Virus record (IMG/VR): IMGVR_UViG_3300028569_000079
Coordinates: 1-38,749 of that record
Strand: one strand, 5' to 3'
DNA from: a virus
Length of the DNA stretch: 38,749 bases
Shown here: piece by piece, positions 13,913 to 30,290 of the stretch
Layout: each line of letters opens with the position of its first letter
Numbering within the stretch: the stretch's first letter is position 1
The notes under the pieces: model-generated
Told to the model about the DNA's origin: nothing
Seen by the model: only the letters and a program-made list of their open reading frames with translations
Databases searched by the model: none
Position numbers and translations under genes: made by a program

Positions 13913-13960
13913 TAAGTTTCCATAACAGAAACGGTCCTAAGACGCCCGATTTCTCGGGGG

Positions 13961-14323
13961 CTAATTCAAACTATATACCCACATCTTGTCAATTTCAGAT
14001 GAGTATTTGTCTTTGAATTGATATACATCATCCTTATAAATAGATGAAAATATATAAATTCTATAATATCCCTCATCCGATTTCAAAATTTTTGTTTGAT
14101 ATCCCAAGTCAGACATCGTTTCTTGAAATTGTTCCGCGTTGTATCTGTCTAAGAACGAACCTATAATAAGAAAATACGATGAGTTTGCGGTTTCGACATC
14201 TTCAGAAATAACATTTGAAAGGTCATTGTCTATGTTATCTGATTCATTCGATGACTTGAAAAGTCCGATCATCAGAAGAATTAGAACAGATAATGATACC
14301 AAGATAAGATATATTTTAGACAT
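13961..14323 (-). CDS. Membrane-anchored SPOR-domain protein
   Basis: 120 residues. One N-terminal membrane helix (about 4-22), an acidic linker (25-47), then residues 49-119 with the SPOR pattern: YFLIIGSFLDRYNAEQF, LGYQTKILKSDEGYYRIYI, a second helix and a final MWVYSL strand. SPOR domains bind denuded glycan strands of peptidoglycan, usually at the division septum. In a phage it could place a lysis, division-blocking or wall-binding activity. TAATG overlap with the stop of the carbamoyltransferase gene makes it the last gene of that operon. Confidence 0.8.
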   Translation of the reverse strand: MSKIYLILVSLSVLILLMIGLFKSSNESDNIDNDLSNVISEDVETANSSYFLIIGSFLDRYNAEQFQETMSDLGYQTKILKSDEGYYRIYIFSSIYKDDVYQFKDKYSSEIDKMWVYSLN

Positions 14324-16110: not shown

Positions 16111-16113
16111 TCT

Positions 16114-16299
16114 TTATGACAGCAAAATATTTACCTGATTCATAATATTTTGTTGTCTCATCTGTAACTCCCTGATTTGTTTGTTCTGAGAATCATTGAG
16201 TTCGAAATCTTCACCCTTGATGGAATTGACTTTGTTTGATAATAAATCGTAATCATACATCAACTGTTGATACCTTTTTCCTTTTTCTTCGTTATTCAT
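16114..16299 (-). CDS. Short coiled-coil protein
   Basis: 61 residues, nearly all helical and charged (MNNEEKGKRYQQLMYDYDLL, then QNKQIRELQMRQQNIMNQVN). Heptad-like spacing of L/I/V/M suggests a coiled coil. It is 3 bases upstream of the carbamoyltransferase and may be its first operon partner. No family recognised. Confidence 0.65.
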   Translation of the reverse strand: MNNEEKGKRYQQLMYDYDLLSNKVNSIKGEDFELNDSQNKQIRELQMRQQNIMNQVNILLS

Positions 16300-16385
16300 T
16301 GTTTTTTTTTTAAAAATAGTTTATAAAAATGTATTATCAAGACATATATAACACATGGTTTACTTATAATATTTGATGAAAAATT

Positions 16386-16425
16386 CATAGCTAAAAACTA
16401 TCAGGTCATAGCTAAAAACTATCAT
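16386..16425. repeat. Tandem 19-bp direct repeat, operator-like
   Basis: TCATAGCTAAAAACTATCA occurs exactly at 16386-16404 and 16407-16425, a 21-bp period (two helical turns). Each copy holds the inverted repeat ATAG...CTAT. It lies between the acidic lipoprotein gene's terminator and the start of the carbamoyltransferase operon, a good place for a dimeric regulator to bind. Confidence 0.65.
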
Positions 16426-16431
16426 AAACAA

Positions 16432-16460
16432 AAAAGTCAGACTTATGTCCGACTTTTCTT
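16432..16460. terminator. Bidirectional-type terminator
   Basis: AAAAGTCAGAC-TTAT-GTCCGACTTTTCTTTT: about 9 bp with one mismatch, T-run on both strands. It ends the lipoprotein transcript (minus). Confidence 0.7.
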
Positions 16461-16479
16461 TTGATTGGATGGCTAAGAA

Positions 16480-16647
16480 TTACTCCTGAGTTGCCACTTC
16501 ACCTTCAACTTCGACCTCTTCGACAACTTCTTCTTCGACAACTACAGTCGTATCAACTACAGTTTCCTGTACTGTTGGTTCAACTGTTTCTGTTTGACAA
16601 GAAGCCAAGACAGTCAAGGCTACTACAGACATAATGATGTTTTTCAT
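16480..16647 (-). CDS. Small acidic lipoprotein
   Basis: 55 residues. MKNIIMSVVALTVLASC is a signal peptide with lipobox L-A-S-C (Cys17). The mature part is only 39 residues, almost all Glu, Val and Thr (VVVEEEVVEEVEVEGE). Such a low-complexity acidic tail on a lipid anchor could coat the periplasm or the cell surface. Upstream in-frame ATGs exist, but the signal peptide places the start here. No family recognised. A TATATTTAT element is 31 bases upstream. Confidence 0.75.
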   Translation of the reverse strand: MKNIIMSVVALTVLASCQTETVEPTVQETVVDTTVVVEEEVVEEVEVEGEVATQE

Positions 16648-16678
16648 AAATGAAAAATTATTAAATTTATTTGTATTC

Positions 16679-16687
16679 ATAAATATA
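16679..16687 (-). promoter_or_regulatory. TATATTTAT promoter element
   Basis: Minus-strand CTATATTTATG, 31 bases before the lipoprotein ATG; TTTTTTGTTC lies just upstream. Confidence 0.45.
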
Positions 16688-16720
16688 GAACAAAAAAGGT
16701 GGAAGTAAAATTTAATTTTA

Positions 16721-17005
16721 TTAAATTGTTTCTTCCGAAGTTTGGTCAGGAGTTTCATCAGAGTTGATTGAAATTGTAAGAACTGAACCTTGTTCCAACG
16801 CATCCTCACAGGGTGCGATGTGGACTTGTTCATCTTTACGATATACAATAACTTTTTCTACATGTTCATGTCCTGTAATTTTTGTATTCTCTGTTAGGTC
16901 AATTACGATACCTTGACCCTCGTCTAAAATAATACCCAAAGCCTTAGCAAAAATAAGGGATGGGACCATCCAACTCGAGTCTGTTTGTGTTTCTTGATTT
17001 GTCAT
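16721..17005 (-). CDS. Protein of unknown function
   Basis: 94 residues, MTNQETQTDSSWMVPSLIFA onwards, with strands GIVIDL, KVIVYRK, VHIAPCED and VLTISIN and an acidic, Thr/Glu-rich tail. No family recognised. A start five codons upstream (MKLLK) is possible. It lies upstream of the acidic lipoprotein gene and could share its transcript. Confidence 0.65.
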   Translation of the reverse strand: MTNQETQTDSSWMVPSLIFAKALGIILDEGQGIVIDLTENTKITGHEHVEKVIVYRKDEQVHIAPCEDALEQGSVLTISINSDETPDQTSEETI

Positions 17006-17063
17006 TTTTAAAAGTTTCAATAATAATAATAGAAATAAAAACTAAATTCAAGCATTATACTAT

Positions 17064-17069
17064 ATTTAT
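17064..17069 (+). promoter_or_regulatory. TATATTTAT-N4-ATG promoter element
   Basis: CTATATTTAT, GTTT, ATG at 17074. It sets the start of the basic peptide gene. Confidence 0.6.
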
Positions 17070-17073
17070 GTTT

Positions 17074-17187
17074 ATGAAAAAGATGATTACTAATATCCTA
17101 AATAAGATCCTAATATCATTGAAATTCAGGAAACCAACAAAAAACAAAGTAAAAAGATTAGTTTACAATAAAAACTCGAAAAGATGA
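17074..17187 (+). CDS. Small highly basic peptide (37 aa)
   Basis: MKKMITNILNKILISLKFRK followed by PTKNKVKRLVYNKNSKR: an amphipathic, strongly cationic helix. A longer frame starts at 16960 in a divergent gene, but the TATATTTAT-N4-ATG element fixes the start at 17074. The stop overlaps the next start (ATGA). It could bind membrane or nucleic acid; function unknown. Confidence 0.65.
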   Translation: MKKMITNILNKILISLKFRKPTKNKVKRLVYNKNSKR

Positions 17188-17501
17188 ATTTAGAAGAAAA
17201 TTTAAATAGATTAAAAATGCTGATGGATCTGAAAGAACAGATATCCAACGACGAAATAATCAATCAGATAGATAATAACGATTTTTCTAAGTTGAAGGAA
17301 TACCTCTCTATAAATTCAGAATTGAGAGACAATTTAAATCGATTATTTCTCACATCCACAATCGATGATTTGTATAATAAACTAATAAAGTCGAATAAAA
17401 CAATAATTTTGAAAGGGATGCAGATTGCAAATCAAAATAAAGATAAATTTACTTTTGATTTCCTAAACAAAATTCTCAAGAATTCAGAAAACTTATCTTA
17501 G
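17184..17501 (+). CDS. Helical protein of unknown function
   Basis: 105 residues, MNLEENLNRLKMLMDLKEQI onwards, all-helical with heptad-like leucines and many Asn/Lys. Translationally coupled to the basic peptide before it, and convergent with the RfbC gene with a 4-base overlap. No family recognised; the first residues (MNLEENLNRL) are reminiscent of the helical MNLRETIKR leader but lack a clear [L/I]-x-E near residue 12. Confidence 0.7.
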   Translation: MNLEENLNRLKMLMDLKEQISNDEIINQIDNNDFSKLKEYLSINSELRDNLNRLFLTSTIDDLYNKLIKSNKTIILKGMQIANQNKDKFTFDFLNKILKNSENLS

Positions 17502-18049
17502 AAGTTTACAAACTTTTCTATCTCACTCCACTCGGGAAGAACCCTATCTTTTTCAGATAAAATAAATTCTGATGGGTTCACAACCCAATCGATGTTAAAT
17601 TCAGAGTCGTTATACCTAATACCACCATCTTGATTAGGAAGGTATATCTCATCACATTTGTAGTTGAATACGGAAACTTCGGATAAGGTGATAAAACCAT
17701 GAGCAAATCCCTTGGGAACAAAAATCATCATCATGTTATCCTCTGATAATTCCATACTAAAAGATTGTTTGTAAGTCTGTGAGTTTTTTCGTAAGTCAAC
17801 GACAACATCCAAAACTTTACCAGCAATACACCGAACCAATTTTGCCTGAGGAGCAATCTTTTGAAAGTGTAATCCACGAATAACACCGTAAGAACTAACG
17901 GATTGATTATCCTGTACAAAATTGGTATAAATTCCTTTTTCTCTAAAAAACTGTTGATTGTAACTTTCGAAAAAGTATCCTCGATCATCAGGATAGACCG
18001 TTGGTGTTATAATGTATAAATCCTGTAAAGGACCTTTTTCAATTTTCAT
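17498..18049 (-). CDS. rfbC: dTDP-4-dehydrorhamnose 3,5-epimerase
   Basis: 183 residues, the usual family length. Cupin fold with the family signatures FVQDNQSVSSYGVIRGLHFQ (catalytic His61), VLDVVVDLRKNSQTY, FVPKGFAHGF (His117) and FNYKCDEIY (catalytic Tyr130). It would turn dTDP-4-keto-6-deoxyglucose into the L-rhamnose-series ketosugar. The other Rml genes are absent here, so it probably feeds from the host pool. With the carbamoyltransferase it points to deoxysugar or glycan change. ATTTATAAT precedes the ATG. Confidence 0.92.
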   Translation of the reverse strand: MKIEKGPLQDLYIITPTVYPDDRGYFFESYNQQFFREKGIYTNFVQDNQSVSSYGVIRGLHFQKIAPQAKLVRCIAGKVLDVVVDLRKNSQTYKQSFSMELSEDNMMMIFVPKGFAHGFITLSEVSVFNYKCDEIYLPNQDGGIRYNDSEFNIDWVVNPSEFILSEKDRVLPEWSEIEKFVNF

Positions 18050-18090
18050 ATTATAAATAATAATAATAAATAAAAAAAAGTACCCTTTAT

Positions 18091-18255
18091 TTATTGAATC
18101 AATTTATATTTTTTTTCTACAATTTCTATAACTTCACAAAGAGATAATTTATGATTTACCTTCTTTATCTCACTAATTTCATTTCTAAATTGATTGATTA
18201 CACCATTACTGTGCGCCAAGTAGTAAACTTCCTCAACAAATTGTTCGTTGGTCAT
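18091..18255 (-). CDS. Small helical protein of unknown function
   Basis: 54 residues, MTNEQFVEEVYYLAHSNGVI onwards, ending EIVEKKYKLIQ. Helical and charged, coding-like composition. It starts one base after the stop of 18257-18391 and ends 41 bases before the RfbC gene; a three-gene operon is likely. No family recognised. Confidence 0.65.
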   Translation of the reverse strand: MTNEQFVEEVYYLAHSNGVINQFRNEISEIKKVNHKLSLCEVIEIVEKKYKLIQ

Positions 18256-18256
18256 T

Positions 18257-18391
18257 TTATTTAGAATGAGTTTGTTTGTTATTCAATTTGATGGCTTCCT
18301 CGATCATAGAGGACATATTATTATTATATTTACAGGGACATGTTGGTTTCCCGTGCGCTCTCAAAACTAATTTTGCCTCCTCTAAATTCAT
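18257..18391 (-). CDS. Small protein of unknown function
   Basis: 44 residues: MNLEEAKLVLRAHGKPTCPC, then KYNNNMSSMIEEAIKLNNKQ and THSK. It has a C-P-C motif. A TATATTTG promoter lies 35 bases upstream. First gene of the small operon that leads into RfbC. No family recognised. Confidence 0.6.
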   Translation of the reverse strand: MNLEEAKLVLRAHGKPTCPCKYNNNMSSMIEEAIKLNNKQTHSK

Positions 18392-18426
18392 ATTCAATGT
18401 GTTGTTGTGTTTATCTTTTGTGTGTG

Positions 18427-18434
18427 CAAATATA
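18427..18434 (-). promoter_or_regulatory. TATATTTG promoter element
   Basis: Minus-strand TATATTTG with a leader of about 30 bases to ATG 18391. TTG near 20 bases upstream is not certain. Confidence 0.5.
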
Positions 18435-18497
18435 GTGAAATTATTGATAAAAAAAATACCCTAACCTAAGTTATGGTAAATTTTTACAAACATATTA

Positions 18498-18776
18498 TTA
18501 CATATCATGTTCCATATTATGTTCGAACTCATCATACATATACGCTTTGAAAACTGATACAACATTTTGTTCAGCCTGTGCAATCCCCGATGACATCCAA
18601 TCTTGTAATTCTTCACCATCTTCCATGGTCTCCCACATTTTATATGCCGCAGTAGCGATGGCAAACAATTGTTGTTTAGCCATATAATTACCATCAGATC
18701 CTTCGTTAGTTTCTACATTCATAGACTCAACAATCTTCTGAAGTTGTGTTTTATTCAAAATATATTCTTTACCCAT
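18498..18776 (-). CDS. Protein of unknown function, possible diverged leader
   Basis: 92 residues, MGKEYILNKTQLQKIVESMN onwards. The N-terminus resembles the leader family (YILNKTQLQKI compared with IITESQLENL) and has I-V-E at 15-17. The rest is helical with DGEELQDWMSSGIAQAEQNVVSVFKAY. An ATG two codons upstream overlaps the TATATTTAT element, so the second ATG, at N4 spacing, is chosen. Function unknown. Confidence 0.65.
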   Translation of the reverse strand: MGKEYILNKTQLQKIVESMNVETNEGSDGNYMAKQQLFAIATAAYKMWETMEDGEELQDWMSSGIAQAEQNVVSVFKAYMYDEFEHNMEHDM

Positions 18777-18780
18777 AATC

Positions 18781-18789
18781 ATAAATATA
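18781..18789 (-). promoter_or_regulatory. TATATTTAT-N4-ATG promoter element
   Basis: Minus-strand TATATTTAT, GATT, ATG at 18776. Confidence 0.55.
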
Positions 18790-18797
18790 ATGAAAAT

Positions 18798-18825
18798 AAA
18801 AAAGGTCAGAATAATCTGACCTTTT
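18798..18825. terminator. Bidirectional terminator
   Basis: AAAAGGTCAGA-ATAA-TCTGACCTTTT, perfect stem, T-runs both ways. A second small hairpin CTGAC-AGGA-GTCAG (18832-18845) precedes it on the minus strand. Ends the 18912-19703 operon. Confidence 0.8.
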
Positions 18826-18911
18826 GGGACTGACAGGAGTCAGATTCCACCACCTCAGTTTATAGAGAGAGGACTCTTTGGAAAATCTTGAAGGTATTTG
18901 TAATCAATTAT

Positions 18912-19127
18912 TTATTTCAGACTACTACCGTTTACCCTCCTACTATTGAATATTTCACGAGCTTTATCCATTTTATCAACTTTTTGATCCAAGAAAACTG
19001 TAACAATGAATATTCTTTCCCAATGAGTACATTGTTCTTTTATGACTTGGTTATAGACATCCACATCAACATCCAACTCTTGAGCAATCGATAAGTCCAT
19101 CAGAGCGAAAAGACCGAGTTCTTCCAT
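18912..19127 (-). CDS. Small protein of unknown function
   Basis: 71 residues, MEELGLFALMDLSIAQELDV onwards, helical with a hydrophobic middle (ERIFIVTVFLDQKVDK). One base separates it from the stop of the 19129-19416 gene. Last of a three-gene operon. No family recognised. Confidence 0.65.
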   Translation of the reverse strand: MEELGLFALMDLSIAQELDVDVDVYNQVIKEQCTHWERIFIVTVFLDQKVDKMDKAREIFNSRRVNGSSLK

Positions 19128-19128
19128 T

Positions 19129-19416
19129 TTACTTACCTTTCAATTGTTTCAGTTTGATTCTTAATAAATCCAAAGTATCATTTTGTTGTTTAGTACGATT
19201 TTTCTTGGATTGATATTCTGAAATAAGATTTTCTATCATCATCGTTTCAGAATTTACTGGTGGATTATCGACTTTGACATTTTTTACCTCGGGATCTTTT
19301 GCCACTTTTGCAGGTGGCGGCGATCCTTGTTTACGTTTCTTGTATTCCTCATTTACAAGATGGACCGCCGCCGCTCCTACCAATAGACCACCTACAAATC
19401 TCCAAAAACCACTCAT
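19129..19416 (-). CDS. Membrane-anchored small protein
   Basis: 95 residues. N-terminal hydrophobic glycine-rich segment (FWRFVGGLLVGAAAVHLV, about 4-21), then a basic and Pro-rich linker (KKRKQGSPPPAKVAK) and a C-terminal coiled-coil-like helix. Middle gene of the operon, coupled by ATGA overlap to 19413-19688. No family recognised. Confidence 0.7.
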   Translation of the reverse strand: MSGFWRFVGGLLVGAAAVHLVNEEYKKRKQGSPPPAKVAKDPEVKNVKVDNPPVNSETMMIENLISEYQSKKNRTKQQNDTLDLLRIKLKQLKGK

Positions 19417-19688
19417 GATCTTGTAACCATTGCTTCGATCTTAGACTTGATCATTTCAGTCGTGCCCAAATCATTGATGTTAGTAAGGATGATAGAATCA
19501 ACCAAGATCCTATATGGGATGTGTACCAAGTAATCCGACCCATTGAAGAAGTCAAAGTCTCCTTTATGTGCAAGACATCCATCGATCAACCTCAAGAATA
19601 TAGAGAATTGCTCGTAATTGACAAATGTTTCATTTACCAATTCTCCAACGGTGTCGTGGAGTATACGTATGTTGTGTGCGATTTTCAT
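19413..19688 (-). CDS. Protein of unknown function, predicted leaderless mRNA
   Basis: 91 residues, MKIAHNIRILHDTVGELVNE onwards. Mixed helices with two internal hydrophobic stretches. A start five codons upstream would lie inside the promoter; TATATTTG and 4 bases precede the ATG at 19688. First gene of the 18912-19688 operon. No family recognised. Confidence 0.7.
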   Translation of the reverse strand: MKIAHNIRILHDTVGELVNETFVNYEQFSIFLRLIDGCLAHKGDFDFFNGSDYLVHIPYRILVDSIILTNINDLGTTEMIKSKIEAMVTRS

Positions 19689-19692
19689 AAGA

Positions 19693-19724
19693 CAAATATA
19701 CAAAAGAATTTTTACTCCACCAAA
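19693..19724 (-). promoter_or_regulatory. Host-type promoter TTTG-N20-TATATTTG-N4-ATG
   Basis: Minus strand: TTTG (complement 19721-19724), 20 bases, TATATTTG (19693-19700), TCTT, ATG 19688. A full consensus match, sitting in the tail of the upstream gene. Confidence 0.7.
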
Positions 19725-19870
19725 TCTTCTTTGTCAGGAACGTGAGAAATTTTTAATTTGGTGAACTTACCCATTCCAGAAAAATTACCAAAATTGAGCC
19801 AAGCTTGTGACTCTTTGATGTAGATAACACTTTTCTTTCCTTTTTGATCAATAAATTTTATCTTATACAT
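19712..19870 (-). CDS. Small beta-rich protein of unknown function
   Basis: 52 residues, MYKIKFIDQKGKKSVIYIKE onwards. Alternating strands, Lys-rich, with WLNFGNFSGMGKFTKLKI. An upstream start at 19915 would run through the TATATTTG promoter and into the divergent gene, so this ATG is chosen. No family recognised. Confidence 0.65.
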   Translation of the reverse strand: MYKIKFIDQKGKKSVIYIKESQAWLNFGNFSGMGKFTKLKISHVPDKEDLVE

Positions 19871-19889
19871 AGTATTTATATTATTATCA

Positions 19890-19919
19890 CAAATATATGA
19901 AAAATATTCCACCAACCAA
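19890..19919 (-). promoter_or_regulatory. Host-type promoter TTG-N19-TATATTTG
   Basis: Minus-strand TATATTTG (19890-19897) with TTG 19 bases upstream (complement 19917-19919); the ATG at 19870 is 19 bases on. It overlaps the start of the divergent gene at 19897. Confidence 0.55.
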
Positions 19920-20382
19920 AAATGAGAAGATGCTTATTAAGGTATTGGTACGAAGATATTCGAAAGAGGAACTTGAAAAAGATTTTGAAGATATAGAAAA
20001 TTTGATGGATTCGGCATTGGTTAATACCGCATCGAGAATGATCGGGATAGATGTACCTTTAAGGATCGATGGTCAGTATTTGAAATACAGTATTGATAAT
20101 TATGAAGAAATTAAAAATAATAATTACCCCGATCAATTCGAAAGAATGTCAACTCTATCAGCACAAATAGTTGTAGAAAAAAACATCAGTAAATCAACAA
20201 ACTATGAATTAATATTACCATATCTCAAATCGAGGTTTGAAGATACAAAAGATGAAATAGAAAACAATTTATGGGATTACGATCCTCAGGAAGCTTGGTC
20301 AGATTGGGGAGATACTGAAATGATCAACATGGATTACGAATTCGAAGATGATGGACCTTATCCTGGTAACATCATAGAGTAA
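19897..20382 (+). CDS. Paralogue A of a tandem pair, unknown function
   Basis: 161 residues, MKNIPPTKNEKMLIKVLVRR onwards. Shares with the next gene NIPPTKxEQM, KVLVKRxSKE, GIDVxxxIDxQYLxYxIDNYxxIxNNxFPDxFERM, and a C-terminal NxWDYDPE ... NIIE. The second half is very acidic. No family recognised. A recent or constrained tandem duplication. Confidence 0.75.
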   Translation: MKNIPPTKNEKMLIKVLVRRYSKEELEKDFEDIENLMDSALVNTASRMIGIDVPLRIDGQYLKYSIDNYEEIKNNNYPDQFERMSTLSAQIVVEKNISKSTNYELILPYLKSRFEDTKDEIENNLWDYDPQEAWSDWGDTEMINMDYEFEDDGPYPGNIIE

Positions 20383-20410
20383 TTCGTTTATATAATACTA
20401 CCACTAATCT

Positions 20411-20902
20411 ATGACAAACATTCCGCCAACCAAAAAAGAACAGATGATTATGAAAGTCTTGGTAAAAAGATTTTCAAAAGAAAAATTATTTCAAGAATTG
20501 GTGGATATCCAATCTCAAGGGTTGACTTCCGATATGGTTCGGAGCTCATCCAAGTTAGTTGGTATTGATGTTCATAGCCAAATTGATAGCCAATATCTCA
20601 ATTACGCAATCGACAACTACGATAAAATTCAAAATAATGAATTCCCTGATCGGTTTGAACGAATGATGACTTTGGAATCCAGTATGAAAACAATAGAATA
20701 CCGTAAAGTGTACTCCAATTACAGTTTAACTATTCCAGTATTGAAATCTTTTTCAGATGAGTTGAAACAAGATATTGATGATAATATCTGGGATTACGAC
20801 CCTGAATTTATTGATGAGGATTCCGGTGATACAGACGTTGAAAATATTGAAATTTCTTTTGATAAAATTGTTAAACCTTGGGGTGATAATATCATAGAGT
20901 GA
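20411..20902 (+). CDS. Paralogue B of a tandem pair, unknown function
   Basis: 163 residues, MTNIPPTKKEQMIMKVLVKR onwards, clearly homologous over its whole length to 19897-20382 from which it is separated by 28 bases. Same helical N-terminus and acidic tail (NIWDYDPEFIDEDSGDTDVE). Converges with the glutamine synthetase gene. No family recognised. Confidence 0.75.
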   Translation: MTNIPPTKKEQMIMKVLVKRFSKEKLFQELVDIQSQGLTSDMVRSSSKLVGIDVHSQIDSQYLNYAIDNYDKIQNNEFPDRFERMMTLESSMKTIEYRKVYSNYSLTIPVLKSFSDELKQDIDDNIWDYDPEFIDEDSGDTDVENIEISFDKIVKPWGDNIIE

Positions 20903-20950
20903 TTAGTGTACGTTTACACAGTGATTCAATTTAAAAAGTAAGAGTCCTTA

Positions 20951-22009
20951 TCAATTCTCCTGAAACAAAAGGTCCACCATCTCGTCAATATCGGTGGTGA
21001 AATCCAAAGCTTCTGATATCACACGAACAATCCTATATGGATCACCATTTGATGCAGGTCTACGATCCTCAACATAACCCTTCCATTCAATAGAAGTTGG
21101 AAGTGGTACACGAATGGATGAACCACGATCAGAGATCCCCCAGCTAAACGTATCAATACTTTGGGTCTCGTGTTTACCAGTTAGACGAAGGTTGTTGTCA
21201 GAACCGTAGTTCTCAATATGAAGTTCATGTCTTTCCTCCAAACGATGAAATAACACTTGGAAGTAATCTTCACCACCAACTTCTCTCATCATACCGTTTG
21301 AAAAGTTACAGTGAAGTCCCGATCCATTCCAATCACCCATCACAGGTTTCGGGTGGAACTCAATTACCAATCCATATTCCTCACTCATCTGTTGAAGGAT
21401 GTAACGAGACATCCATAGATCGTCACCAGCCTTTAGTTTTCCTTTACTGAACACTTGGTATTCCCATTGACCCAAAAGGACCTCAGCGTTTGTCCCAGTG
21501 ATGTCAATACCCGCTTTGATACACATCTCCATGTGGTTGTCAACAAACTCACGACCATTCACCTGTCCGTTACCAACACCACAGTAATACTTACCCTGTG
21601 GTTCAGGATATCCGTTACTTGGGAACCCAAGTGGACGACCTTCTTTCATAATGGTATACTCCTGTTCAAAACCAAACCAAATATCTTCTTCTTCTAACCC
21701 AACTTGAGATCGTGTGTTTGATACGTGTGGAGTTCCATCAGGAATGAGAACCTCACACATAACAAAATAAGAGTTGAGATATCCTTTGTTGAGGAAGTTT
21801 TCATAAATCCTCACAGGCTTCAATAAACAATCCGAGAAGTGACCTTCAGCCTGTTTAGTTGATGATCCATCGAAAGACCAAATAGAACAATCATCCAAAC
21901 CGATTCGGTGATTCTCATCAATGTCAATTACCTTTACCTTACTACGAAGGTTGGGCTCAGGAGTATATCCATCAAGCCATACATATTCAAGTTTTACTTT
22001 GTTTTTCAT
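20951..22009 (-). CDS. glnA: Glutamine synthetase (GSII-like)
   Basis: 352 residues, the short length of the GSII (eukaryote-like) type. Beta-grasp start with YVWLDGYTPEPNLRSK and WSFDGSSTKQAEG (44-56), YYCGVGNG then REFVDNHMEMCIKAGI, AEVLLGQWEYQ (metal and substrate site), HPKPVMGDWNGSGLHCNFS, and RGSSIRVP near the ATP/glutamate site. It would make glutamine from glutamate, ammonia and ATP. No adenylylation region is expected in GSII. A phage copy is unusual; it could raise glutamine for carbamoyl phosphate and nucleotide synthesis. Confidence 0.92.
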   Translation of the reverse strand: MKNKVKLEYVWLDGYTPEPNLRSKVKVIDIDENHRIGLDDCSIWSFDGSSTKQAEGHFSDCLLKPVRIYENFLNKGYLNSYFVMCEVLIPDGTPHVSNTRSQVGLEEEDIWFGFEQEYTIMKEGRPLGFPSNGYPEPQGKYYCGVGNGQVNGREFVDNHMEMCIKAGIDITGTNAEVLLGQWEYQVFSKGKLKAGDDLWMSRYILQQMSEEYGLVIEFHPKPVMGDWNGSGLHCNFSNGMMREVGGEDYFQVLFHRLEERHELHIENYGSDNNLRLTGKHETQSIDTFSWGISDRGSSIRVPLPTSIEWKGYVEDRRPASNGDPYRIVRVISEALDFTTDIDEMVDLLFQEN

Positions 22010-22050
22010 ATTTTTTTGTTAGACCCCCTATTTTAGGTGGGTGTCGTCTG

Positions 22051-22058
22051 TAAATATA
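22051..22058 (-). promoter_or_regulatory. TATATTTA promoter and hairpin leader of glnA
   Basis: Minus-strand TATATTTA about 41 bases before the ATG at 22009. The leader holds ACCCACCTA-AAA-TAGGGGGT, a hairpin just upstream of the start that could act in control or end the 22099-22794 transcript. Confidence 0.45.
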
Positions 22059-22098
22059 TATAATTTATTGTAAAGTGTCTATAAAAATGGGGATCGTA

Positions 22099-22794
22099 TT
22101 AGTTTTTTTTACAAATTACTTTTATGTTTTGACCAGCTGTGTTTTCAGATAGTAACTTCCAACCATTTTCAGGTTGTTGAACCCACCACCATATGTGACT
22201 ACCTTTACCAACACAAGGATAAGAGATGGTTACTCGTTCTGTGGAAAAAGACTCACCATTGATCATGTGGTTCCAATCTACCCAAGTTCCGTCAAGGAAG
22301 TTATCATCAACAATTACTATAGTATCATTTGTTAATTTGTCCTTAATCGCATCGAATTCCCTCCATCCATGCAGTGCTGATGGAAATGGATTCATCAAAT
22401 CCAAATCCCAAGAATCCAAATGAACCAAATCAACTTTGTCATTGAATTTTTTTAAAAAACTGACAGAATCATCAACAACAAATTCAACACAAGTTATCCC
22501 CTCATTTTGGAAGATCTCTTTAGCCCTTGATATTATGTTTTCATCAATATCTACCATCCACATCTTTCCACCTGTCTGTTGTGAGATTTGTGCGAAGAAT
22601 AAACCCATAATACCATCATTCCAATTATGACTTGCGCCAGTTTCGATGATGTTAATGGGACCTTCTACAGAAAAATGATCTTTTAGAGTTTTTACAATAC
22701 TATCAACTTGTTCCGATCGTTCCGACCTTCCGTTTTTCTGTTTGAGATTGTATTTGTAGATTTCAGCCTGTTCCTGTATAATTTGTAAATTCAT
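22099..22794 (-). CDS. Class I SAM-dependent methyltransferase
   Basis: 231 residues. Rossmann motifs: INIIETGASHNWNDG (motif I, about 47-61), MWMVDIDENIISRAKEIF (acidic strand-2 end), CVEFVVDDSVSFLKKF (motif II), VDLVHLDSWDLD (motif IV), then IVIVDDNFLDGTW. The pattern resembles the Methyltransf_24/TylF-like group that acts on sugars or small molecules, in line with the RfbC and carbamoyltransferase nearby. Substrate unknown. No promoter element seen close to the start. Confidence 0.8.
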   Translation of the reverse strand: MNLQIIQEQAEIYKYNLKQKNGRSERSEQVDSIVKTLKDHFSVEGPINIIETGASHNWNDGIMGLFFAQISQQTGGKMWMVDIDENIISRAKEIFQNEGITCVEFVVDDSVSFLKKFNDKVDLVHLDSWDLDLMNPFPSALHGWREFDAIKDKLTNDTIVIVDDNFLDGTWVDWNHMINGESFSTERVTISYPCVGKGSHIWWWVQQPENGWKLLSENTAGQNIKVICKKN

Positions 22795-23347: not shown

Positions 23348-25417
23348 CTAATAATGGAAGATAGTCACAATAAATAAATACTGTTGAAATTGATTTCCAA
23401 AATTCGTTCTTAGAAAACCATAGTATACTCCGTCAGGTACGTTTGCCCCGTCCCAATCATTTTCATATTGAAGAGTTTCATATACCGTTTTACCCCATCT
23501 ATTTTTGATAATAAGAGGTCGATGATCACTGAACAATAAGTTTCTAATCACAAACAGATCGTTCATACCATCTCCATTGGGTGTAAATACATTTGGTATA
23601 ATAACCGTAGGTGGTTCAGGTTGAACACAGATCACATAATTGCTCTCACTAACATAACCACTATCTTCAGTGGTAACTTTGATTAAGTATGATCCAACAT
23701 CTAAGGTGTCAGAATATATACAATAGGTGGTGTCCATAATTGGTGATGGGTTCCATAAGACCCATTGATTTCGATAATTCAGATAAACATTATATTCAGG
23801 GTTTTTCCATCCGTCATATTGATTCCATATTAGACATACCGAATCACATGACCCGTTACTTCTCAATAAAATGGAATGAATCGAATCCGAGGGACCGAAT
23901 ACAAATCCATTATATCTGAAATCTATTTTGTACGAATATGATTCTCCGTCAACATTTGTTGCCGTGAGGTCATCATAACTCAGTTGTTTCCAATTTGTTA
24001 TTACTTGACGAAACGCATATTGGGTACCATCGAATCTGAATATACCAAATCCTTCAAATTGAGTGGTATCACAGGTGCTTGTATCTATCGACCATTCGAG
24101 TTTGGTATGGGTGTCATTTACAACCGTTACATTTTCAAATTTCCAAATCGGATCCAAACAATCATCCACAATCAACACCAATGTATCAAATTCGTTCATC
24201 GGGAAACCACATTTATTGATCAGTGTATTACCATCGTTACCAGTCTTGGAATATAAAAAGTATCTTCCGTTGACAAGGAGAGGTTTTTGTAAGTGGACTG
24301 TAATCTTTTGTGTTTCATTATTGACATCACAGATCGCTGAAAGTCTTTTGATTGGAATGGGCTGACCCAATGGATTTGTCAAACGGAAATCACTACCATC
24401 GCTCGATATGGAAGCACAATCCAACTTGACAAGAAAGTTAAGTTCCACCAAAGAATCCCCACAACTATAATCAACTGCGGGTAACATCGTCAAGGAATCA
24501 ATATATTGACCAGGATAATTGTAATTCAGTATGACCCCCTGTGTTGCCAAAGCCGAGCAGTTGGCGGATATCGAGATCATCATATCTCTTGATGATGAAC
24601 CAACAGCATACCAAACAAAGAATGTGGAATCATATCGATATTCGGTAATTTTCACACTCATCACATCAATTTCTTGTTGTGTGGGATGAAAGGTAATGGT
24701 TCCTGTCTGTGGGTTTATCCCGAAGGATGATGAAGTAACAGGTTGTGTTGCAGAAAAACCTGGATCAAAGGGAATGTTCGTTTGATTCGGGTAGAGACCT
24801 TCTCTACAACTAATCATTTGATAGTGAATACTATCACCATCGAATTCGATACTATTTTGAGCCCAACTGAATGTCCTGTTAATACAGAAAGCTCGAACAG
24901 GTTCTGAAACAAATATTGGTGATGAATTGTTACCGTTGGTATTGTTAAGATCCGCATCGAAGAAAAAACCGTCGTTACCAAAAGTACCGTTAGATGTAAA
25001 AATGTTGGTGATATTTCCTGGCCGACAACAATCTTCCCACCAAAATTTGAAGGTAGGACAAACACCCGGTAGAACCACAAACCCCTTGTATGTGTAGATC
25101 TCAAATGTTCGGGTTCCTGGTGTCCCGAGTGTTACGCAATCAAATAGGGTGGGTGCCAGTAATCCCGAACCTGGTTGGAGGGTCATCGGTATATTTTGAT
25201 TTGTGAAACATGTAGAACTAACCGTAACGTCGGTTGTCAATGGCATCCCAATACCACTAACATCTCGGTATAATCTAAGGATTACTTTATAGTGGTTATT
25301 GATTCCCGTGGAATCTCCGATGTACTTATACTGAATATCACCACCAGCGTAGTGAGATCCCATTCCAACAAGGGATGATAATATAAGTAAGAGGGTAAAT
25401 AAATTTTTCATAGACAT
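23348..25417 (-). CDS. Secreted multi-domain protein with T9SS type B sorting domain
   Basis: 689 residues. N-terminal signal peptide (MSMKNLFTLLLILSSLVGMG) followed by SHYAGGDIQYKYIGDS, an opening I have seen in large gliding-motility-associated proteins of Bacteroidota. Long beta-rich, Ig/FN3-like middle (23 or more cysteines) including PEYNVYLNYRNQWVLW. Residues 605-689 hold IPNVFTPNGDGMNDLF, LIIKNRWGKTVYE, WDGANVPDGVYYGFL, the hallmarks of the type B sorting domain recognised by the type IX secretion system. So the product should leave the host cell through T9SS. Most unusual for a phage; adhesin, decoy or surface-blocking roles are possible. Confidence 0.88.
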   Translation of the reverse strand: MSMKNLFTLLLILSSLVGMGSHYAGGDIQYKYIGDSTGINNHYKVILRLYRDVSGIGMPLTTDVTVSSTCFTNQNIPMTLQPGSGLLAPTLFDCVTLGTPGTRTFEIYTYKGFVVLPGVCPTFKFWWEDCCRPGNITNIFTSNGTFGNDGFFFDADLNNTNGNNSSPIFVSEPVRAFCINRTFSWAQNSIEFDGDSIHYQMISCREGLYPNQTNIPFDPGFSATQPVTSSSFGINPQTGTITFHPTQQEIDVMSVKITEYRYDSTFFVWYAVGSSSRDMMISISANCSALATQGVILNYNYPGQYIDSLTMLPAVDYSCGDSLVELNFLVKLDCASISSDGSDFRLTNPLGQPIPIKRLSAICDVNNETQKITVHLQKPLLVNGRYFLYSKTGNDGNTLINKCGFPMNEFDTLVLIVDDCLDPIWKFENVTVVNDTHTKLEWSIDTSTCDTTQFEGFGIFRFDGTQYAFRQVITNWKQLSYDDLTATNVDGESYSYKIDFRYNGFVFGPSDSIHSILLRSNGSCDSVCLIWNQYDGWKNPEYNVYLNYRNQWVLWNPSPIMDTTYCIYSDTLDVGSYLIKVTTEDSGYVSESNYVICVQPEPPTVIIPNVFTPNGDGMNDLFVIRNLLFSDHRPLIIKNRWGKTVYETLQYENDWDGANVPDGVYYGFLRTNFGNQFQQYLFIVTIFHY

Positions 25418-25462
25418 TTTTATTCTTTTGTTATAAAAGAAATATACATCAAAATGTTAAAT

Positions 25463-25496
25463 AAAAAACCCCCACCGAGATAATCGATGAGGGTTT
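25463..25496 (-). terminator. Terminator of the structured RNA unit
   Basis: Minus strand AAACCCTC ... GGGGGTTT followed by a T-run (8-bp stem counting one G-U). It closes the transcription unit that starts near 26349. Confidence 0.8.
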
Positions 25497-26349
25497 GGCT
25501 AATGCTCTGAGACTACGAGCTTAGGTGATCGGTCTTCGGTGAGATTATTTATTCCTCACTCGGTCCACCTTAGTTGCCTAAAGTAACCAATCAGTGTCGG
25601 TAATTTGAGTCTACCACTCTTTTCGTTGACACCAACTCGACTGTTACTTCTATCTCTTGAACCTTCGGAGCTCACCAAGGGACTGCGGTCCCACGAGTAG
25701 TTTCACAATCAATACCGACGGACTTGCGGTCCAATCAGCACCTTCATTGGTCCGTTGACCTGAAGGATTAGACACCTTTCAGTGTCAACGCCCGAAGACT
25801 TTTGCTAGTTATAATTGTACACTTGTGAAAATGTAATTAGCTATATAGAAAGATAGAAGATGTGCTTCGGGAAAAGTCTCGATCCTTTTGGGAACGAAAT
25901 GCTTCACACCTCCCTGTGAACCCGCCAGCTCACGGTCAGTTAGGACTACGGTGGGTTTGAACCCTTGGTAACCCCTCAGACTGGTACCCAGCTTTACAAC
26001 ATCCGGCGGGATGTCTCAAACCGTCACCTGTACCTTTTCCTGTTGGTGTCTCCACCTCAACTCCGATTATCTACAAAATCGGTGTAACCTCATCCCCTCA
26101 GCACTTGCCGTCAGGGTCTTGGTTGTAGGTACTTTGTTTAGTTGTCAGGAAAAACCTGCGAGACTACCCGAGTCGCTAAACTCTCTCATCCCCTTTAGTC
26201 CCATTGCTGGGGTTATCTTATTGGTCGCTAAACCGACCATTGTTAAACCATTTTACAATTTGGGGGGTAAAGTGGCAAAATAAAAGAACGTTTCAGAAAC
26301 ATCTTCAATAAACTACGGGTAGTAAAACTAAAGTCCCTGTTTCTGATTT
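25463..26349 (-). ncRNA. Candidate giant structured noncoding RNA (about 890 nt, GOLLD/ROOL-like in style)
   Basis: This unit has a host-type promoter, a terminator and no plausible gene; the only open frame (plus 26011-26283) is on the wrong strand. The minus strand is full of compact helices: TCAGAAACA/TGTTTCTGA and ACTACCCG/CGGGTAGT near the 5' end, GGTCG/CGACC, CCGATT/AATCGG, CATCC-CGCC-GGATG, CTGG-GTA-CCAG, CCTTCA-GGTC-AACG-GACC-AA-TGAAGG, GACAC/GTGTC, GGGAC-CGCA-GTCCC, and CTTTAG-GCAA-CTAAGG with a GNRA loop. A T-loop-like GGGTTCAAACCC is present. CTTTAGT/ACTAAAG could form a pseudoknot. GC is higher than around it. Class not proven by eye. Confidence 0.75.
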
Positions 26350-26355
26350 GTTGTA

Positions 26356-26385
26356 CAAAGATACAACGAATATTAGATCCGTCAA
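26356..26385 (-). promoter_or_regulatory. Promoter of the structured RNA (TTG-N19-TATCTTTG)
   Basis: Minus-strand TTG (complement 26383-26385), 19 bases, TATCTTTG (26356-26363): a full TTG / TAnnTTTG match. Start of transcription expected near 26349. Confidence 0.7.
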
Positions 26386-26430
26386 TACCCTGACACAAAA
26401 ATATTTAATTATTTTGGTGAAATAATAAAT

Positions 26431-26443
26431 ATCACCTCCTTTA
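26431..26443 (-). other. Perfect Shine-Dalgarno-like sequence in a 3' untranslated position
   Basis: Minus strand reads TAAAGGAGGTGAT, 8 bases after the stop of 26452-27372 and not followed by a start codon. It is the exact complement of the usual bacterial 16S rRNA 3' end. GGTGA in it pairs with TCACC downstream (hairpin 26416-26436). Confidence 0.5.
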
Positions 26444-26451
26444 GTAAAAGA

Positions 26452-27372
26452 TTATGTGAGTGGAGAATATTTTACAAATCTGTCTCCTGACTTATAAAGT
26501 GCAAACACTTGACAATCGGGTGCTTGATATTGAAATATTTTGGGATTCACTTTCATCTGTGATGATACTTGGACGGGGTGTGCAACACCTTTGTCGTCTA
26601 TGGCTAATATGTCAATACCGAAATAATCTACAAATCCAAAATCATCAGAGAAAGGATATACATCGAATCCCAAAGACCTTAGTGTGTTCCATCCAGCATC
26701 TTCGACTTCATAACCTTTGTTTCTTGTAAAATTGAAAGCATCCATTACGGTCTTCTGACTTTGTTCATCTTGCATCAATTCTGTAATAAGTGTGTCCAAT
26801 TTCGACAGGGTTGTAGGGTCATTGAGTAGATCCATAACTTCCTCGATAATTTGGGAGTTATCAAACTTATCCATTTTGAAGAACTTATATTTGGTTTGCT
26901 TGTTGATTTGTTGTGCTAGTTTGGAAAGGATAAAAGACTGATTGGAACTATGAGTGTTGATCCTATTGAATAGTGAGTAACTCTGATTATCATCCAACCT
27001 CATGGTCATATTTTTGCCAGATAGTTTTACCATATCTTTTTGTATCTCTGTTTGGATTACTTTACAAGCATTTGTTTTTTGTAAAAGTTCCAACATCTTT
27101 CTCATGTCAGCCATTCTGTCTTCATAGAAACGGTTACCTGGTTTCAACTCCACTCTGTCTCCCATCGAAAGATAATCTCCATTTCTAAGTTGACCGAAAA
27201 TGGAAAAGGATTTCTTCTTTAGTTGTTCTGAACCTTTACCCCCTGTTCCTGTGGAGAGTATATTCTGTAAGTTTTTACAGAAAACTTTGCCCTCACCAAG
27301 TCCATCACATGGGTCAACCCTTTTCTCGACCTCAGAGATCAAGGCTTCTTTTAATAGTTCGAGAAGTTTCAT
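26452..27372 (-). CDS. Leader-tagged protein with a nuclease-like C-terminal domain
   Basis: 306 residues. It starts MKLLELLKEALISEVEKRVD, a helical leader with I-S-E at 12-14. The middle (30-200) is helical and Lys-rich. Residues about 220-275 read GYEVEDAGWNTLRSLGFDVYP ... GIDILAIDDKGVAHPVQVSSQMK: an E/aligned helix, a strand with D254 and a Q-V-x-S-x-x-x-K strand, which resembles a restriction-endonuclease-like (PD-(D/E)XK) core with Q in place of E/D. This is a weak call. TATTTAT-N4-ATG element upstream. If packaged, it would enter the host with the DNA. Confidence 0.7.
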   Translation of the reverse strand: MKLLELLKEALISEVEKRVDPCDGLGEGKVFCKNLQNILSTGTGGKGSEQLKKKSFSIFGQLRNGDYLSMGDRVELKPGNRFYEDRMADMRKMLELLQKTNACKVIQTEIQKDMVKLSGKNMTMRLDDNQSYSLFNRINTHSSNQSFILSKLAQQINKQTKYKFFKMDKFDNSQIIEEVMDLLNDPTTLSKLDTLITELMQDEQSQKTVMDAFNFTRNKGYEVEDAGWNTLRSLGFDVYPFSDDFGFVDYFGIDILAIDDKGVAHPVQVSSQMKVNPKIFQYQAPDCQVFALYKSGDRFVKYSPLT

Positions 27373-27396: not shown

Positions 27397-27531
27397 TTAA
27401 TCTTCGTCTTCCAAACTATCACAGAAAGTTTTGGGTCGATAATTTTTATTTTTTGTGGTCTCTGATGTTTCACCATCGAGTTCGTCCCAGTAAATAAATC
27501 GGTAAGAGTCGTCTGAGATATATTTTATAAT
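27397..27531 (-). CDS. Possible small gene lacking a standard start codon
   Basis: 44 codons that read like protein (IIKYISDDSYRFIYWDELDG, ETSETTKNKNYRPKTFCDSL, EDED) and end at TAA 27397-27399. There is no ATG, GTG or TTG in the frame; the best entry is ATT at 27529-27531, overlapping the Nudix stop (27525-27527), where coupled re-initiation could work. Could also be a chance frame or remnant. Confidence 0.3.
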   Translation of the reverse strand: MIKYISDDSYRFIYWDELDGETSETTKNKNYRPKTFCDSLEDED

Positions 27532-27929
27532 TGTTTCGAAATTAGATTACGGAAGTTTTCTTCCATCGACAAAGGTAATTCATTTTTTGTGAAGTATCTA
27601 CATTCTGTATGTTCGTCACCATCGATAGCATTTTCCAAGTCAGGGAGGATTTCCTCGTCAAATTCCGTGGTGAATATATAAAACATACCCTTTGGTTTGG
27701 TACCATCTCGATTGTATCTTCTCATAATACCGATGAAAGACAGGTCAGAATCGATTTCTATATTGGTTTCCTCGTAGAACTCCCTGAGGGCACCGTCCAC
27801 TACCTTTTCACCAAGTTCTATCTTGCCTGCGGGAATACTCCACTCACCAGGTAAACTTCCTTCGGTGTTTCTTTTACATAAAAGGCATTTTCCGTTGGAT
27901 GTGATTAAAATACCGGCCACTTTCTTCAT
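27525..27929 (-). CDS. Nudix hydrolase
   Basis: 134 residues, usual small Nudix size. The Nudix box is complete at 35-57: GKIELGEKVVDGALREFYEETNI (G-x5-E-x7-R-E-x2-E-E), with N in place of the last G. MutT-like opening (VAGILITSNGKCLLCKR) and WSIPAGK. It would cut a nucleoside diphosphate linked to X: an oxidised dNTP, a nucleotide sugar or an RNA cap. Divergent from the DUF192 gene. Confidence 0.92.
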   Translation of the reverse strand: MKKVAGILITSNGKCLLCKRNTEGSLPGEWSIPAGKIELGEKVVDGALREFYEETNIEIDSDLSFIGIMRRYNRDGTKPKGMFYIFTTEFDEEILPDLENAIDGDEHTECRYFTKNELPLSMEENFRNLISKQL

Positions 27930-28361: not shown

Positions 28362-28895
28362 ATGAAACATATTCCGTATTGGAAAGTTTTCATTTACTTG
28401 GTTTCGATAATCTCTGTGTTTTGTCTGTTCTCTTTCTCCTATGGTAGAATTATGAACCTGAAGAACTTGAGCGACTACGAAAAAGAAATCCTTATTGTTG
28501 ATATCAACGGTGGTGGTGATTTCAGTCAGGACGGACTTGTGATTATGTTAAGAGATTTGAATGTACGGTTTCCACATATTGTCGTTGCTCAGGCTCGTGT
28601 CGAGACTGGGATTTATAAATCCAAAGTTTTCCGTGAAAACAACAACCTGTTTGGTATGAAACAGGCAACTGTCAGGGTCAATACCGCACAGGGTACACAA
28701 CACAACCACGCTTACTACGACACGTGGAGGGAAAGTGTTTACGACTATGCGTTCTATCAAACTCGTTACCTATCGGGTGCTAAAAGTGAAGAAGAATACC
28801 TATACGTTCTTGGTCAGAGTTACGCAGAGGATCCCAACTATATTGAGAAATTGAAAAGTGAAATCAAAAGAAACAATCTACGAGGATTGTTTTGA
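28362..28895 (+). CDS. Glucosaminidase-family peptidoglycan hydrolase (endolysin candidate)
   Basis: 177 residues from this start. N-terminal hydrophobic segment (about 8-27, VFIYLVSIISVFCLFSFSYG), a signal or membrane anchor. Residues 60-177 match the GH73 (FlgJ-like) domain: IVVAQARVETGIYKS with likely catalytic Glu81, NNLFGMK (94-100), YDTWRESVYDYAFYQT, and the final SYAEDPNYIEKLKSEI. It would cut the glycan backbone. An ATG at 28317 is also in frame, but it abuts a hairpin; the signal-anchor start is preferred. Overlaps 28878-30290 by 18 bases at its end. Confidence 0.88.
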   Translation: MKHIPYWKVFIYLVSIISVFCLFSFSYGRIMNLKNLSDYEKEILIVDINGGGDFSQDGLVIMLRDLNVRFPHIVVAQARVETGIYKSKVFRENNNLFGMKQATVRVNTAQGTQHNHAYYDTWRESVYDYAFYQTRYLSGAKSEEEYLYVLGQSYAEDPNYIEKLKSEIKRNNLRGLF

Positions 28896-30290
28896 TTCCT
28901 GAATCTTTTGTTTTAGTTTACTGACAAACTCCCTCTGAAACATCTTTACCAGTTTTATATAGGGAGCATCCTCGGACTCGGGATTATATTTATAGGGATC
29001 ATCATTAGGACGAGGAGCTCTTCCTAAGTAATTCAATCCTGATATATTGGTTATACATTTATGTCCCCCTGAGTTAGCTTGAATGATATCATAAGCACTT
29101 ACGGTAACCTTATCTAAGATCTTAAATTGTTCTTCTGTGAGATCTTTATAAGAAACATTCATAATACCCTCTAACACATCCATAGCTTTTTCTCCGTCTT
29201 GTTTGTCCTTGAGTTTATCACCATAGATTGCTTTGAAATCCTTGAATGTAAATCCCACTGATTCGGGATTGACTTTTGACTCTGAAATATATTTGATTGT
29301 TGATAAAGGAACTTTTCTATCTTTCAATTGGTCCTCCCATTTACTCAACACCTCTTGGGCAATATCACCTAAGTTTACTCCTTTGAGTTCTCTCTCCTTC
29401 TTGAATGGGTTACAAGATGCCTGTAGTAATCCCAATGGCCACGCTATGACCATAAAGTCAGCTTCGGGATTGTTTTTGAATGCTGTATATCTATCGTAGG
29501 AACCTGGTTTCATCATACTCCCACCGCCATATTGTACTATGATACCATCATCATATTTTACATTTGGTGAGGTCTTCATTTTACCAACATAATCTTCTTG
29601 ATTCTTTTTTAACATTTCAGGCTCAGGTAATCTCCTATCTTTCATCTGTAGTTTAATTTGATCCAAAATAGAATACAAGGATGGTTCTGAATTCATAACC
29701 AAGTTTTCCAAGAATTGAGGTTTGTTTTTGAACGCTAATAACAATTTGTTTAGAACCAACCCAAGTGCAAATTTGTTTTCCCGAGCCGATTTATCTTTGT
29801 CTAAGGTGAACACATAATTCATTACCTGTTCAGGAGTAATACCATATTGAGCAAAGTCAGCTGAGTCAATCGTTGAAATCAATCTGAGATCGACCTCGGG
29901 AAAAATATCCTTTGGTGAAACTATCTGTGAGATGGTTTCTACATTAGATCTTGAAGATCTGAAGGATTTGGCTGAGGTCTCATCAGCACCGGCCTGTCTA
30001 TCATGGTGATCAGTATGAATAACAAACATCGGTTTACCATGCGCAAAATCTACTAAGACTGGCATGGTGTCACCTTCAGCATCCATTTTCTTCACGGAAA
30101 ATTCTTTGTCTCCGTATTGGATAATTTCAGAGTCAACCACCTTAATACCGTTTGACTCGAGATATTTCTTCATCGCGATGGCTGTGGTCACACCATCCAA
30201 ATCTTGGTGAAAGTAAATCTTGGCTTTAGGATATCTCTGTGCTAACGCACCTATATCTCGTAATCCCGATTCTTTAATTAATTTTTTCAC
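28878..30290 (-). CDS. Leader-tagged DHH-family phosphohydrolase
   Basis: 470 residues. Starts MKKLIKESGLRDIGAL (leader, I-K-E at 5-7). The DHH core follows at once: YFHQDLDGVTTAIAM with H28, D30, D32; D81 in LVDFAHGK; and TDHHDRQ with DHH at 94-96. The C-terminus has the DHHA1-type GGH at 408-410. DHH/DHHA1 enzymes need Mn and cut short oligoribonucleotides, cyclic dinucleotides, pAp or single-stranded DNA. The spacing (a long 200-residue middle) fits none that I know well. If packaged, it could act on host RNA or signal nucleotides at once on entry. Confidence 0.88.
   Translation of the reverse strand: MKKLIKESGLRDIGALAQRYPKAKIYFHQDLDGVTTAIAMKKYLESNGIKVVDSEIIQYGDKEFSVKKMDAEGDTMPVLVDFAHGKPMFVIHTDHHDRQAGADETSAKSFRSSRSNVETISQIVSPKDIFPEVDLRLISTIDSADFAQYGITPEQVMNYVFTLDKDKSARENKFALGLVLNKLLLAFKNKPQFLENLVMNSEPSLYSILDQIKLQMKDRRLPEPEMLKKNQEDYVGKMKTSPNVKYDDGIIVQYGGGSMMKPGSYDRYTAFKNNPEADFMVIAWPLGLLQASCNPFKKERELKGVNLGDIAQEVLSKWEDQLKDRKVPLSTIKYISESKVNPESVGFTFKDFKAIYGDKLKDKQDGEKAMDVLEGIMNVSYKDLTEEQFKILDKVTVSAYDIIQANSGGHKCITNISGLNYLGRAPRPNDDPYKYNPESEDAPYIKLVKMFQREFVSKLKQKIQESKQSS

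What the first reader, a model, noticed from the sequence alone, without database searches (positions are those of the whole stretch)
25463..26349. Giant structured noncoding RNA with its own promoter and terminator
An 890-base minus-strand unit without a gene, with a full host-type promoter (TTG-N19-TATCTTTG), a terminator, higher GC, and more than ten clean helices, GNRA and other tetraloops, a T-loop-like motif and possible pseudoknots. Known giant phage-linked RNAs of this size are GOLLD and ROOL, and GOLLD expression was tied to phage production. This could be a member or a new class; it sits between the T9SS-type gene and tagged genes.
Basis: partly seen in the sequence, partly recalled or inferred. 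Interest (0 to 1): 0.87.

Follow-up and report, generated by a model that had tools for sequence, protein, structure and literature searches.

The report
GOLLD RNA in probable Bacteroidota phage
The 890-base gene-free stretch is a GOLLD RNA, a known giant phage RNA whose best-studied member builds hollow RNA cages, carried here by a phage that very probably infects Bacteroidota bacteria and preceded by a promoter of the host's own type.

Summary
Minus-strand 25504-25914 matches Rfam GOLLD (RF02032) end to end: 289 bits, cut-off 150, E 8e-82. The part upstream, not modelled by Rfam, is a conserved 5' domain. Across 12 distinct homologues it shows 84 consensus pairs, 31 with compensatory changes and 99% of cells paired. 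A Bacteroidota-type promoter (TTG-N19-TATCTTTG) and a terminator bracket the RNA. The same promoter type lies upstream in 15 of 15 further GOLLD loci found through a neighbouring protein gene (about 0.2 expected by chance).

Beyond the brief: GOLLD recurs in a large phage group and in the 634- and 642-kb phages LR745206 and LR756502; by size these belong to genomes published as Bacteroidetes-infecting. It often sits behind a tRNA-Met, downstream of a DHH-phosphoesterase-like gene. In one pair of phages with 97-98% identical flanks, the tRNA-Met + GOLLD cassette is replaced by an HNH-endonuclease cassette, so GOLLD is exchangeable.

It is a new member of a known kind. Assembly into a 14-mer cage is inferred from the published env-38 structure, not shown here; the biological function remains open.

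The parts
26356..26385 (-). Promoter of the Bacteroidota sigma-A type: TTG-N19-TATCTTTG
   Evidence: conserved upstream of GOLLD in relatives and in 15/15 independent loci; consensus from PMC9723704 and PMC2483708
26243..26349 (-). Variable 5' leader of the RNA, including a hairpin TTTCTGA/TCAGAAA; start site inferred about 6 nt after the promoter
   Evidence: Alignment; fold; start site not measured
25915..26242 (-). GOLLD 5' domain, 17 consensus helices, including a GNRA-capped hairpin like L11a of env-38
   Evidence: 84 pairs, 31 with double-sided compensatory changes, 99.0% of cells paired
25504..25914 (-). GOLLD 3' domain (Rfam RF02032, model 1-416)
   Evidence: cmscan 289.2 bits, E 7.9e-82; 1.9e-85
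25808..25856 (-). Variable linker of the 3' domain, approximate bounds; corresponds to the linker that is disordered inside the env-38 cage; no tRNA in it
   Evidence: cmscan alignment; no tRNA found; env-38 from PMC12286853
25650..25706 (-). P21 three-way element with loops L21a (25680-25692) and L21b (25663-25668), proposed counterparts of the symmetric kissing loops B8 and B9
   Evidence: mapping to env-38 numbering is approximate
25466..25496 (-). Intrinsic terminator
   Evidence: 13 pairs, T-rich tail; a terminator hairpin follows the RNA in relatives
27525..27929 (-). NUDIX hydrolase gene, upstream neighbour
   Evidence: PF00293 E 6e-21; orthologues upstream of GOLLD in 16/16 loci, several of them near-identical
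28878..30290 (-). DHH-phosphoesterase-like gene, upstream neighbour in most related GOLLD loci
   Evidence: Motifs HQDLDG, HTDHHD, GGH invariant; PF01368 in 31/31 members, window protein below the curated cut-off; fold matches to RecJ
23348..25417 (-). Downstream gene, 689 aa, with CHU_C type IX secretion signal
   Evidence: PF13585 E 5.6e-17; relatives in six further viral loci

Best explanation
This is a full-length GOLLD RNA gene, about 890 nt, in a fragment of a large phage that very probably infects Bacteroidota. SHOWN HERE: membership of the 3' domain in RF02032; a covarying 5' domain; a conserved promoter of the Bacteroidota sigma-A type; a terminator; and exchangeability of the cassette in closely related phages. 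INFERRED: host RNA polymerase transcribes it independently of its neighbours; the RNA folds into a 5' cap domain and a 3' ring domain and self-assembles into a hollow homo-oligomeric cage, as env-38 GOLLD does (a 14-mer); the cage is an accessory infection factor rather than an essential part. My best guess for the job, at about 30%, is that it captures or shields a translation component such as tRNA during infection, because GOLLD genes lie directly behind a phage tRNA-Met in many of these loci, lie inside a tRNA island in one 634-kb phage, or carry a tRNA in the linker. The confidence below is for identity, architecture and independent transcription, not for this guess.
For: RF02032 over the full model, 289 bits against a cut-off of 150. 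End-to-end alignment of promoter, both domains and terminator in nine loci. 5'-domain covariation: 31 of 84 pairs with double-sided changes, 99.0% of cells paired against 34-46% in slid controls, 0/500 shuffles. Promoter in 15/15 independent loci, about 0.17 expected in total. Bacteroidota host: promoter type, CHU_C gene, GOLLD in LR745206 and LR756502, whose lengths match genomes predicted to replicate in Bacteroidetes (PMC7162821). Swap of the tRNA-Met + GOLLD cassette for an HNH cassette between 97-98% identical flanks. tRNA-Met upstream in many loci and a tRNA in the L020 linker.
Against: No transcript or particle was observed. No GOLLD was found in 247 Bacteroidota genomes, though only 5 candidates per genome were scored and lytic phages would not be expected there. 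This copy has no tRNA next to it or inside it, which weakens the tRNA guess. L21a of the window keeps only the central GC of the palindrome of its near relatives.
Confidence: 0.9

Rival explanations
1. It is a GOLLD RNA, but its function lies in transcript-level regulation or protein binding, and cage formation by env-38 does not carry over to this lineage.
For: Only env-38 was solved as a cage (PMC12286853). The 5' domain is the less conserved part, and the window loop L21a has lost the outer pairs of the palindrome seen in near relatives.
Against: Both domains are conserved at constant length with strong covariation, and central self-complementary dinucleotides are kept in L21a.
Confidence: 0.2
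2. GOLLD works together with the neighbouring DHH-phosphoesterase-like or NUDIX enzyme as an RNA-protein system.
For: Synteny: NUDIX in 16/16 loci, DHH in most; 18 of 30 loci fetched with DHH as bait carry GOLLD just downstream on the same strand; both occur in LR745206 and LR756502.
Against: Both genes remain unchanged where GOLLD is swapped out. L065, L066 and L019 have GOLLD without DHH nearby, and no DHH was found in the contigs G008 and G011. In the two huge phages GOLLD lies about 0.3 Mb from DHH. Shared ancestry explains the synteny.
Confidence: 0.08
3. A mundane element: group I/II intron, long leader or untranslated region of the downstream gene.
For: A sub-threshold L10_leader match (32.7 bits, cut-off 44) overlaps the 3' end and reads the terminator stem.
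Against: No intron family matched at E<=10; its own terminator precedes the downstream gene; full-length GOLLD match far above cut-off.
Confidence: 0.01

Closest known systems
GOLLD RNA (RF02032), env-38 cryo-EM structure (PMC12286853)
   Same: Full 3'-domain model match; two-domain layout of about 440 + 411 nt against 420 + 413; GNRA-capped hairpin in the 5' domain; variable linker at the same place; tRNA-Met upstream in many relatives, as reported for env-38.
   Different: Phage of a probable Bacteroidota host, with a host-type promoter shared across the group; no tRNA next to or inside this copy; exchangeable with an HNH cassette in related phages. Multimer formation not tested.
GOLLD of L022, L024 and L025 (tRNA-rich loci, no Bacteroidota-type promoter found in L024/L025)
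   Same: Same Rfam family (230-241 bits).
   Different: Flanked by tRNA islands; no TTG-N-TAnnTTTG promoter upstream in L024/L025; the 5' half does not align to the window; loop L21b absent. Their hosts were not determined.
ROOL RNA
   Same: Works alike at the level of size, phage origin, tRNA-island neighbourhood and cage formation (PMC12286853).
   Different: No ROOL match in the window at any threshold tried; distinct sequence and secondary structure.

Membership tests
GOLLD (RF02032) | Score over the curated gathering cut-off across the conserved 3' domain | tested here: met
   289.2 bits against 150, model 1-416
GOLLD (RF02032) | A second, less conserved structured 5' domain of about 400 nt | tested here: met
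   Covarying 5' domain; homology of each stem to env-38 not testable without its sequence
GOLLD (RF02032) | Encoded by phages or prophages | tested here: met
   Window is an IMG/VR virus record with an S74-type tail fibre gene
GOLLD (RF02032) | Frequently near tRNA genes | tested here: not met
   No tRNA in this window. Not a strict criterion ('often' in PMC12286853); met in many close relatives
GOLLD (RF02032) | Symmetric kissing loops L21a and L21b joining half-shells | tested here: inconclusive
   Self-complementary centres kept, but the mapping is approximate and window L21a is reduced
GOLLD (RF02032) | Assembly into a 14-mer cage | not testable with these tools
   Needs in-vitro transcription and cryo-EM or mass photometry
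GOLLD (RF02032) | Expression rises during phage lysis | not testable with these tools
   No RNA-seq; the host-type promoter would allow earlier expression
ROOL, OLE, HEARO | Match to the Rfam models of these families | tested here: not met
   None at gathering threshold for the window or at E<=10 for 25000-26800

The most novel reading that the evidence does not exclude
GOLLD cages are a widespread, host-promoter-driven accessory of large Bacteroidota phages, including 634-642-kb phages. They occupy a hot spot where they alternate with homing-endonuclease cassettes, and act as an interchangeable weapon or shield, for example protecting or sequestering phage tRNA-Met against host attack or competing phages.
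Probability: 0.2. Interest if true: 0.75.

Novelty: new member of a known kind. Interest (0 to 1): 0.5.

Why it matters
GOLLD has an atomic structure but no known function. This work places many GOLLD genes in large phages of probable Bacteroidota hosts, shows that they share a host-type promoter, which predicts expression without phage factors, and supplies a natural presence/absence pair of near-identical phages. Together with the covarying 5' domain this gives concrete handles for a functional test.

Tried and rejected
blastn of the RNA and of relatives against 50,697 named phages: no usable match. Pattern scan of genome contigs: by blastn none of the hits was a GOLLD. GOLLD in 247 Bacteroidota genomes: none, a weak negative. 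Relatives of the 306-aa upstream protein by back-translated pattern: none, although tblastn finds it in L008 and L016. Known RNA families in eight GOLLD-negative DHH loci: only tRNAs, so no ROOL substitute there. Single-sequence structure of the DHH protein: pLDDT 35, discarded; with 31 sequences pLDDT 69. A DHH-GOLLD functional pair was considered and set aside because the swap leaves DHH in place. A pairing of L20 with the last hairpin loop of the 5' domain, as a candidate for bridge B7, was tried by eye and not supported in L004 and L005. Two requests failed for technical reasons and were repeated in smaller form.

Full report
WHAT IS THERE. The window is a whole IMG/VR virus record of 38,749 bases, probably a fragment of a larger phage. 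Bases 25463-26349 on the minus strand hold no plausible gene, are G+C-richer than the flanks, begin with TTG-N19-TATCTTTG at 26385-26356 and end with a strong terminator at 25496-25466. The transcript folds 5.2 standard deviations below shuffles.

IDENTITY. cmscan gives one match over cut-off in the window: GOLLD, RF02032, 25504-25914 (-), 289.2 bits against 150, full model. ROOL, OLE and HEARO do not appear. Rfam models only the 3' half. The remaining roughly 440 nt fit the published description of a second, less conserved 5' domain; in env-38 the domains are residues 1-420 and 421-833 (PMC12286853).

THE 5' DOMAIN. Pattern scans of viral contigs found relatives whose GOLLD matches were confirmed by cmscan. 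Nine loci align from promoter to terminator. Thirteen 5' domains (12 distinct) give 84 consensus pairs. 31 pairs carry double-sided compensatory changes, 99.0% of cells are paired against 34-46% when partners are slid, and none of 500 shuffles reaches the covariation score. The structure was derived from the same alignment, which inflates the paired fraction; the compensatory counts are the stronger evidence. One hairpin, GGUG-GAGA-CACC here, sits in a conserved frame and keeps a GNRA loop with a varying stem in distant GOLLDs: GGUG-GGAA-CACC in L117, GUUC-GGAA-GAAC in L133, GGAG-GGAA-CUCC in L115, GGUC-GGAA-GACC in LR745206 (read). This fits the conserved L11a loop of env-38.

CAGE CONTACTS. 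In env-38 the half-shells are joined in part by symmetric kissing loops L21a and L21b. Mapped by approximate numbering, window L21a is CCGCAG (near relatives CGGCCA; AGCU or UCGA centres elsewhere) and L21b has CG where relatives have GC. Self-complementarity is kept where the loop exists. The CG/GC difference in L21b is what self-pairing predicts, but it is one event, and the L004 group and L024/L025 lack that loop. This is suggestive only.

PROMOTER AND HOST. TAnnTTTG with an upstream TTTG/TTG box is the Bacteroidota housekeeping promoter (PMC9723704, PMC2483708). One site proves little: 11 occur in the window, 4.2 expected. But strict sites precede GOLLD in the window, L009, L008, L005, L006, L004, L015 and L016, with weaker forms in four more, and in 15 of 15 loci fetched by a protein bait, against 0.17 expected in total. 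Those 15 include some near-identical contigs, and each region scanned was 350 bases. None was seen in L020 and L023-L025. A CHU_C type IX secretion domain in the downstream gene agrees with a Bacteroidota host. GOLLD also occurs once each in the 634,780-bp LR745206 and the 642,428-bp LR756502. Al-Shayeb et al. predict Bacteroidetes hosts for their genomes above 634 kb (PMC7162821); identification with these two records is by length. That paper does not mention GOLLD in its main text. A T4-type capsid gene in the GOLLD-bearing 297-kb relative G007 and in G021, which carries a relative of the CHU_C gene, suggests a large T4-like phage.

NEIGHBOURS. A NUDIX gene lies upstream in all 16 loci compared and a DHH-phosphoesterase-like gene in most. 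The DHH assignment rests on motifs, PF01368 matches in 31/31 members although the window protein is below the cut-off, and modest fold matches to RecJ, TM-score about 0.34. With this protein as bait, 18 of 30 loci with at least 4 kb downstream carry GOLLD, about half if near-identical contigs are merged. The Rfam model confirms the absences on those contigs.

A NATURAL SWAP. L133 and L145 are 97-98% identical on both sides of the site. L133 10402-11527 holds tRNA-Met, promoter, GOLLD and terminator. L145 10402-11256 holds an HNH endonuclease gene (PF13391, E 1.7e-8) and its contig has no GOLLD. DHH, NUDIX and the 97-aa downstream gene are retained. GOLLD is thus an exchangeable cassette and its neighbours do not depend on it. 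The contigs are fragments, so a copy elsewhere in the L145 phage is not excluded.

MECHANISM. Shown: family, conservation of structure, conservation of promoter, exchangeability. Inferred: host-polymerase transcription and cage assembly. Speculative: cargo or role. The tRNA-Met neighbour in many loci, the tRNA in the L020 linker and the tRNA-like genes around the LR745206 copy (read) point to translation. This copy has no tRNA, which weakens a covalent-cargo reading.

VERDICT. A new member of a known kind, in a phage group for which I found no prior report of GOLLD in the papers available to me. That search covers open-licence papers only, so it is not proof of novelty.

Noticed in passing
window 28878-30290 (-); L074-L153: A DHH-phosphoesterase-like protein of about 470 aa with more than 500 relatives in IMG/VR, no PHROGs match, and in the named-phage collection only four records, all uncultured phages above 630 kb.
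   Followed up: partly
L133 10402-11527 and L145 10402-11256: The tRNA-Met + GOLLD cassette and an HNH-endonuclease cassette replace each other between otherwise 97-98% identical phages.
   Followed up: yes
L133 10301-10410, same in L145; similar in L012, L011, L019: A second possible small RNA of about 85 nt just upstream of the tRNA-Met/GOLLD cassette: TATCTTTG box, CACTCG/CGAGTG stem and GTTGTGGGATTTTTT terminator. Not seen in the window.
   Followed up: no
LR745206.1 420875-421280 (L156) and LR756502.1 434685-435091 (L157): One GOLLD RNA each in 634- and 642-kb phage genomes; in LR745206 it sits among tRNA-like sequences.
   Followed up: partly
window 23348-25417 (-): A 689-aa phage gene product with a CHU_C type IX secretion signal, with relatives 68-82% identical in six further viral loci, some lacking GOLLD.
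   Followed up: partly
window 10614-22794: Accessory metabolic genes: Nol-like carbamoyltransferase, dTDP-4-dehydrorhamnose 3,5-epimerase, glutamine-synthetase-like, spermidine-synthase-like, 2OG-Fe(II) oxygenase and calcineurin-like phosphoesterase.
   Followed up: no
L020 6954-7394 (-): A GOLLD RNA with a tRNA-Gln inside its linker region.
   Followed up: no
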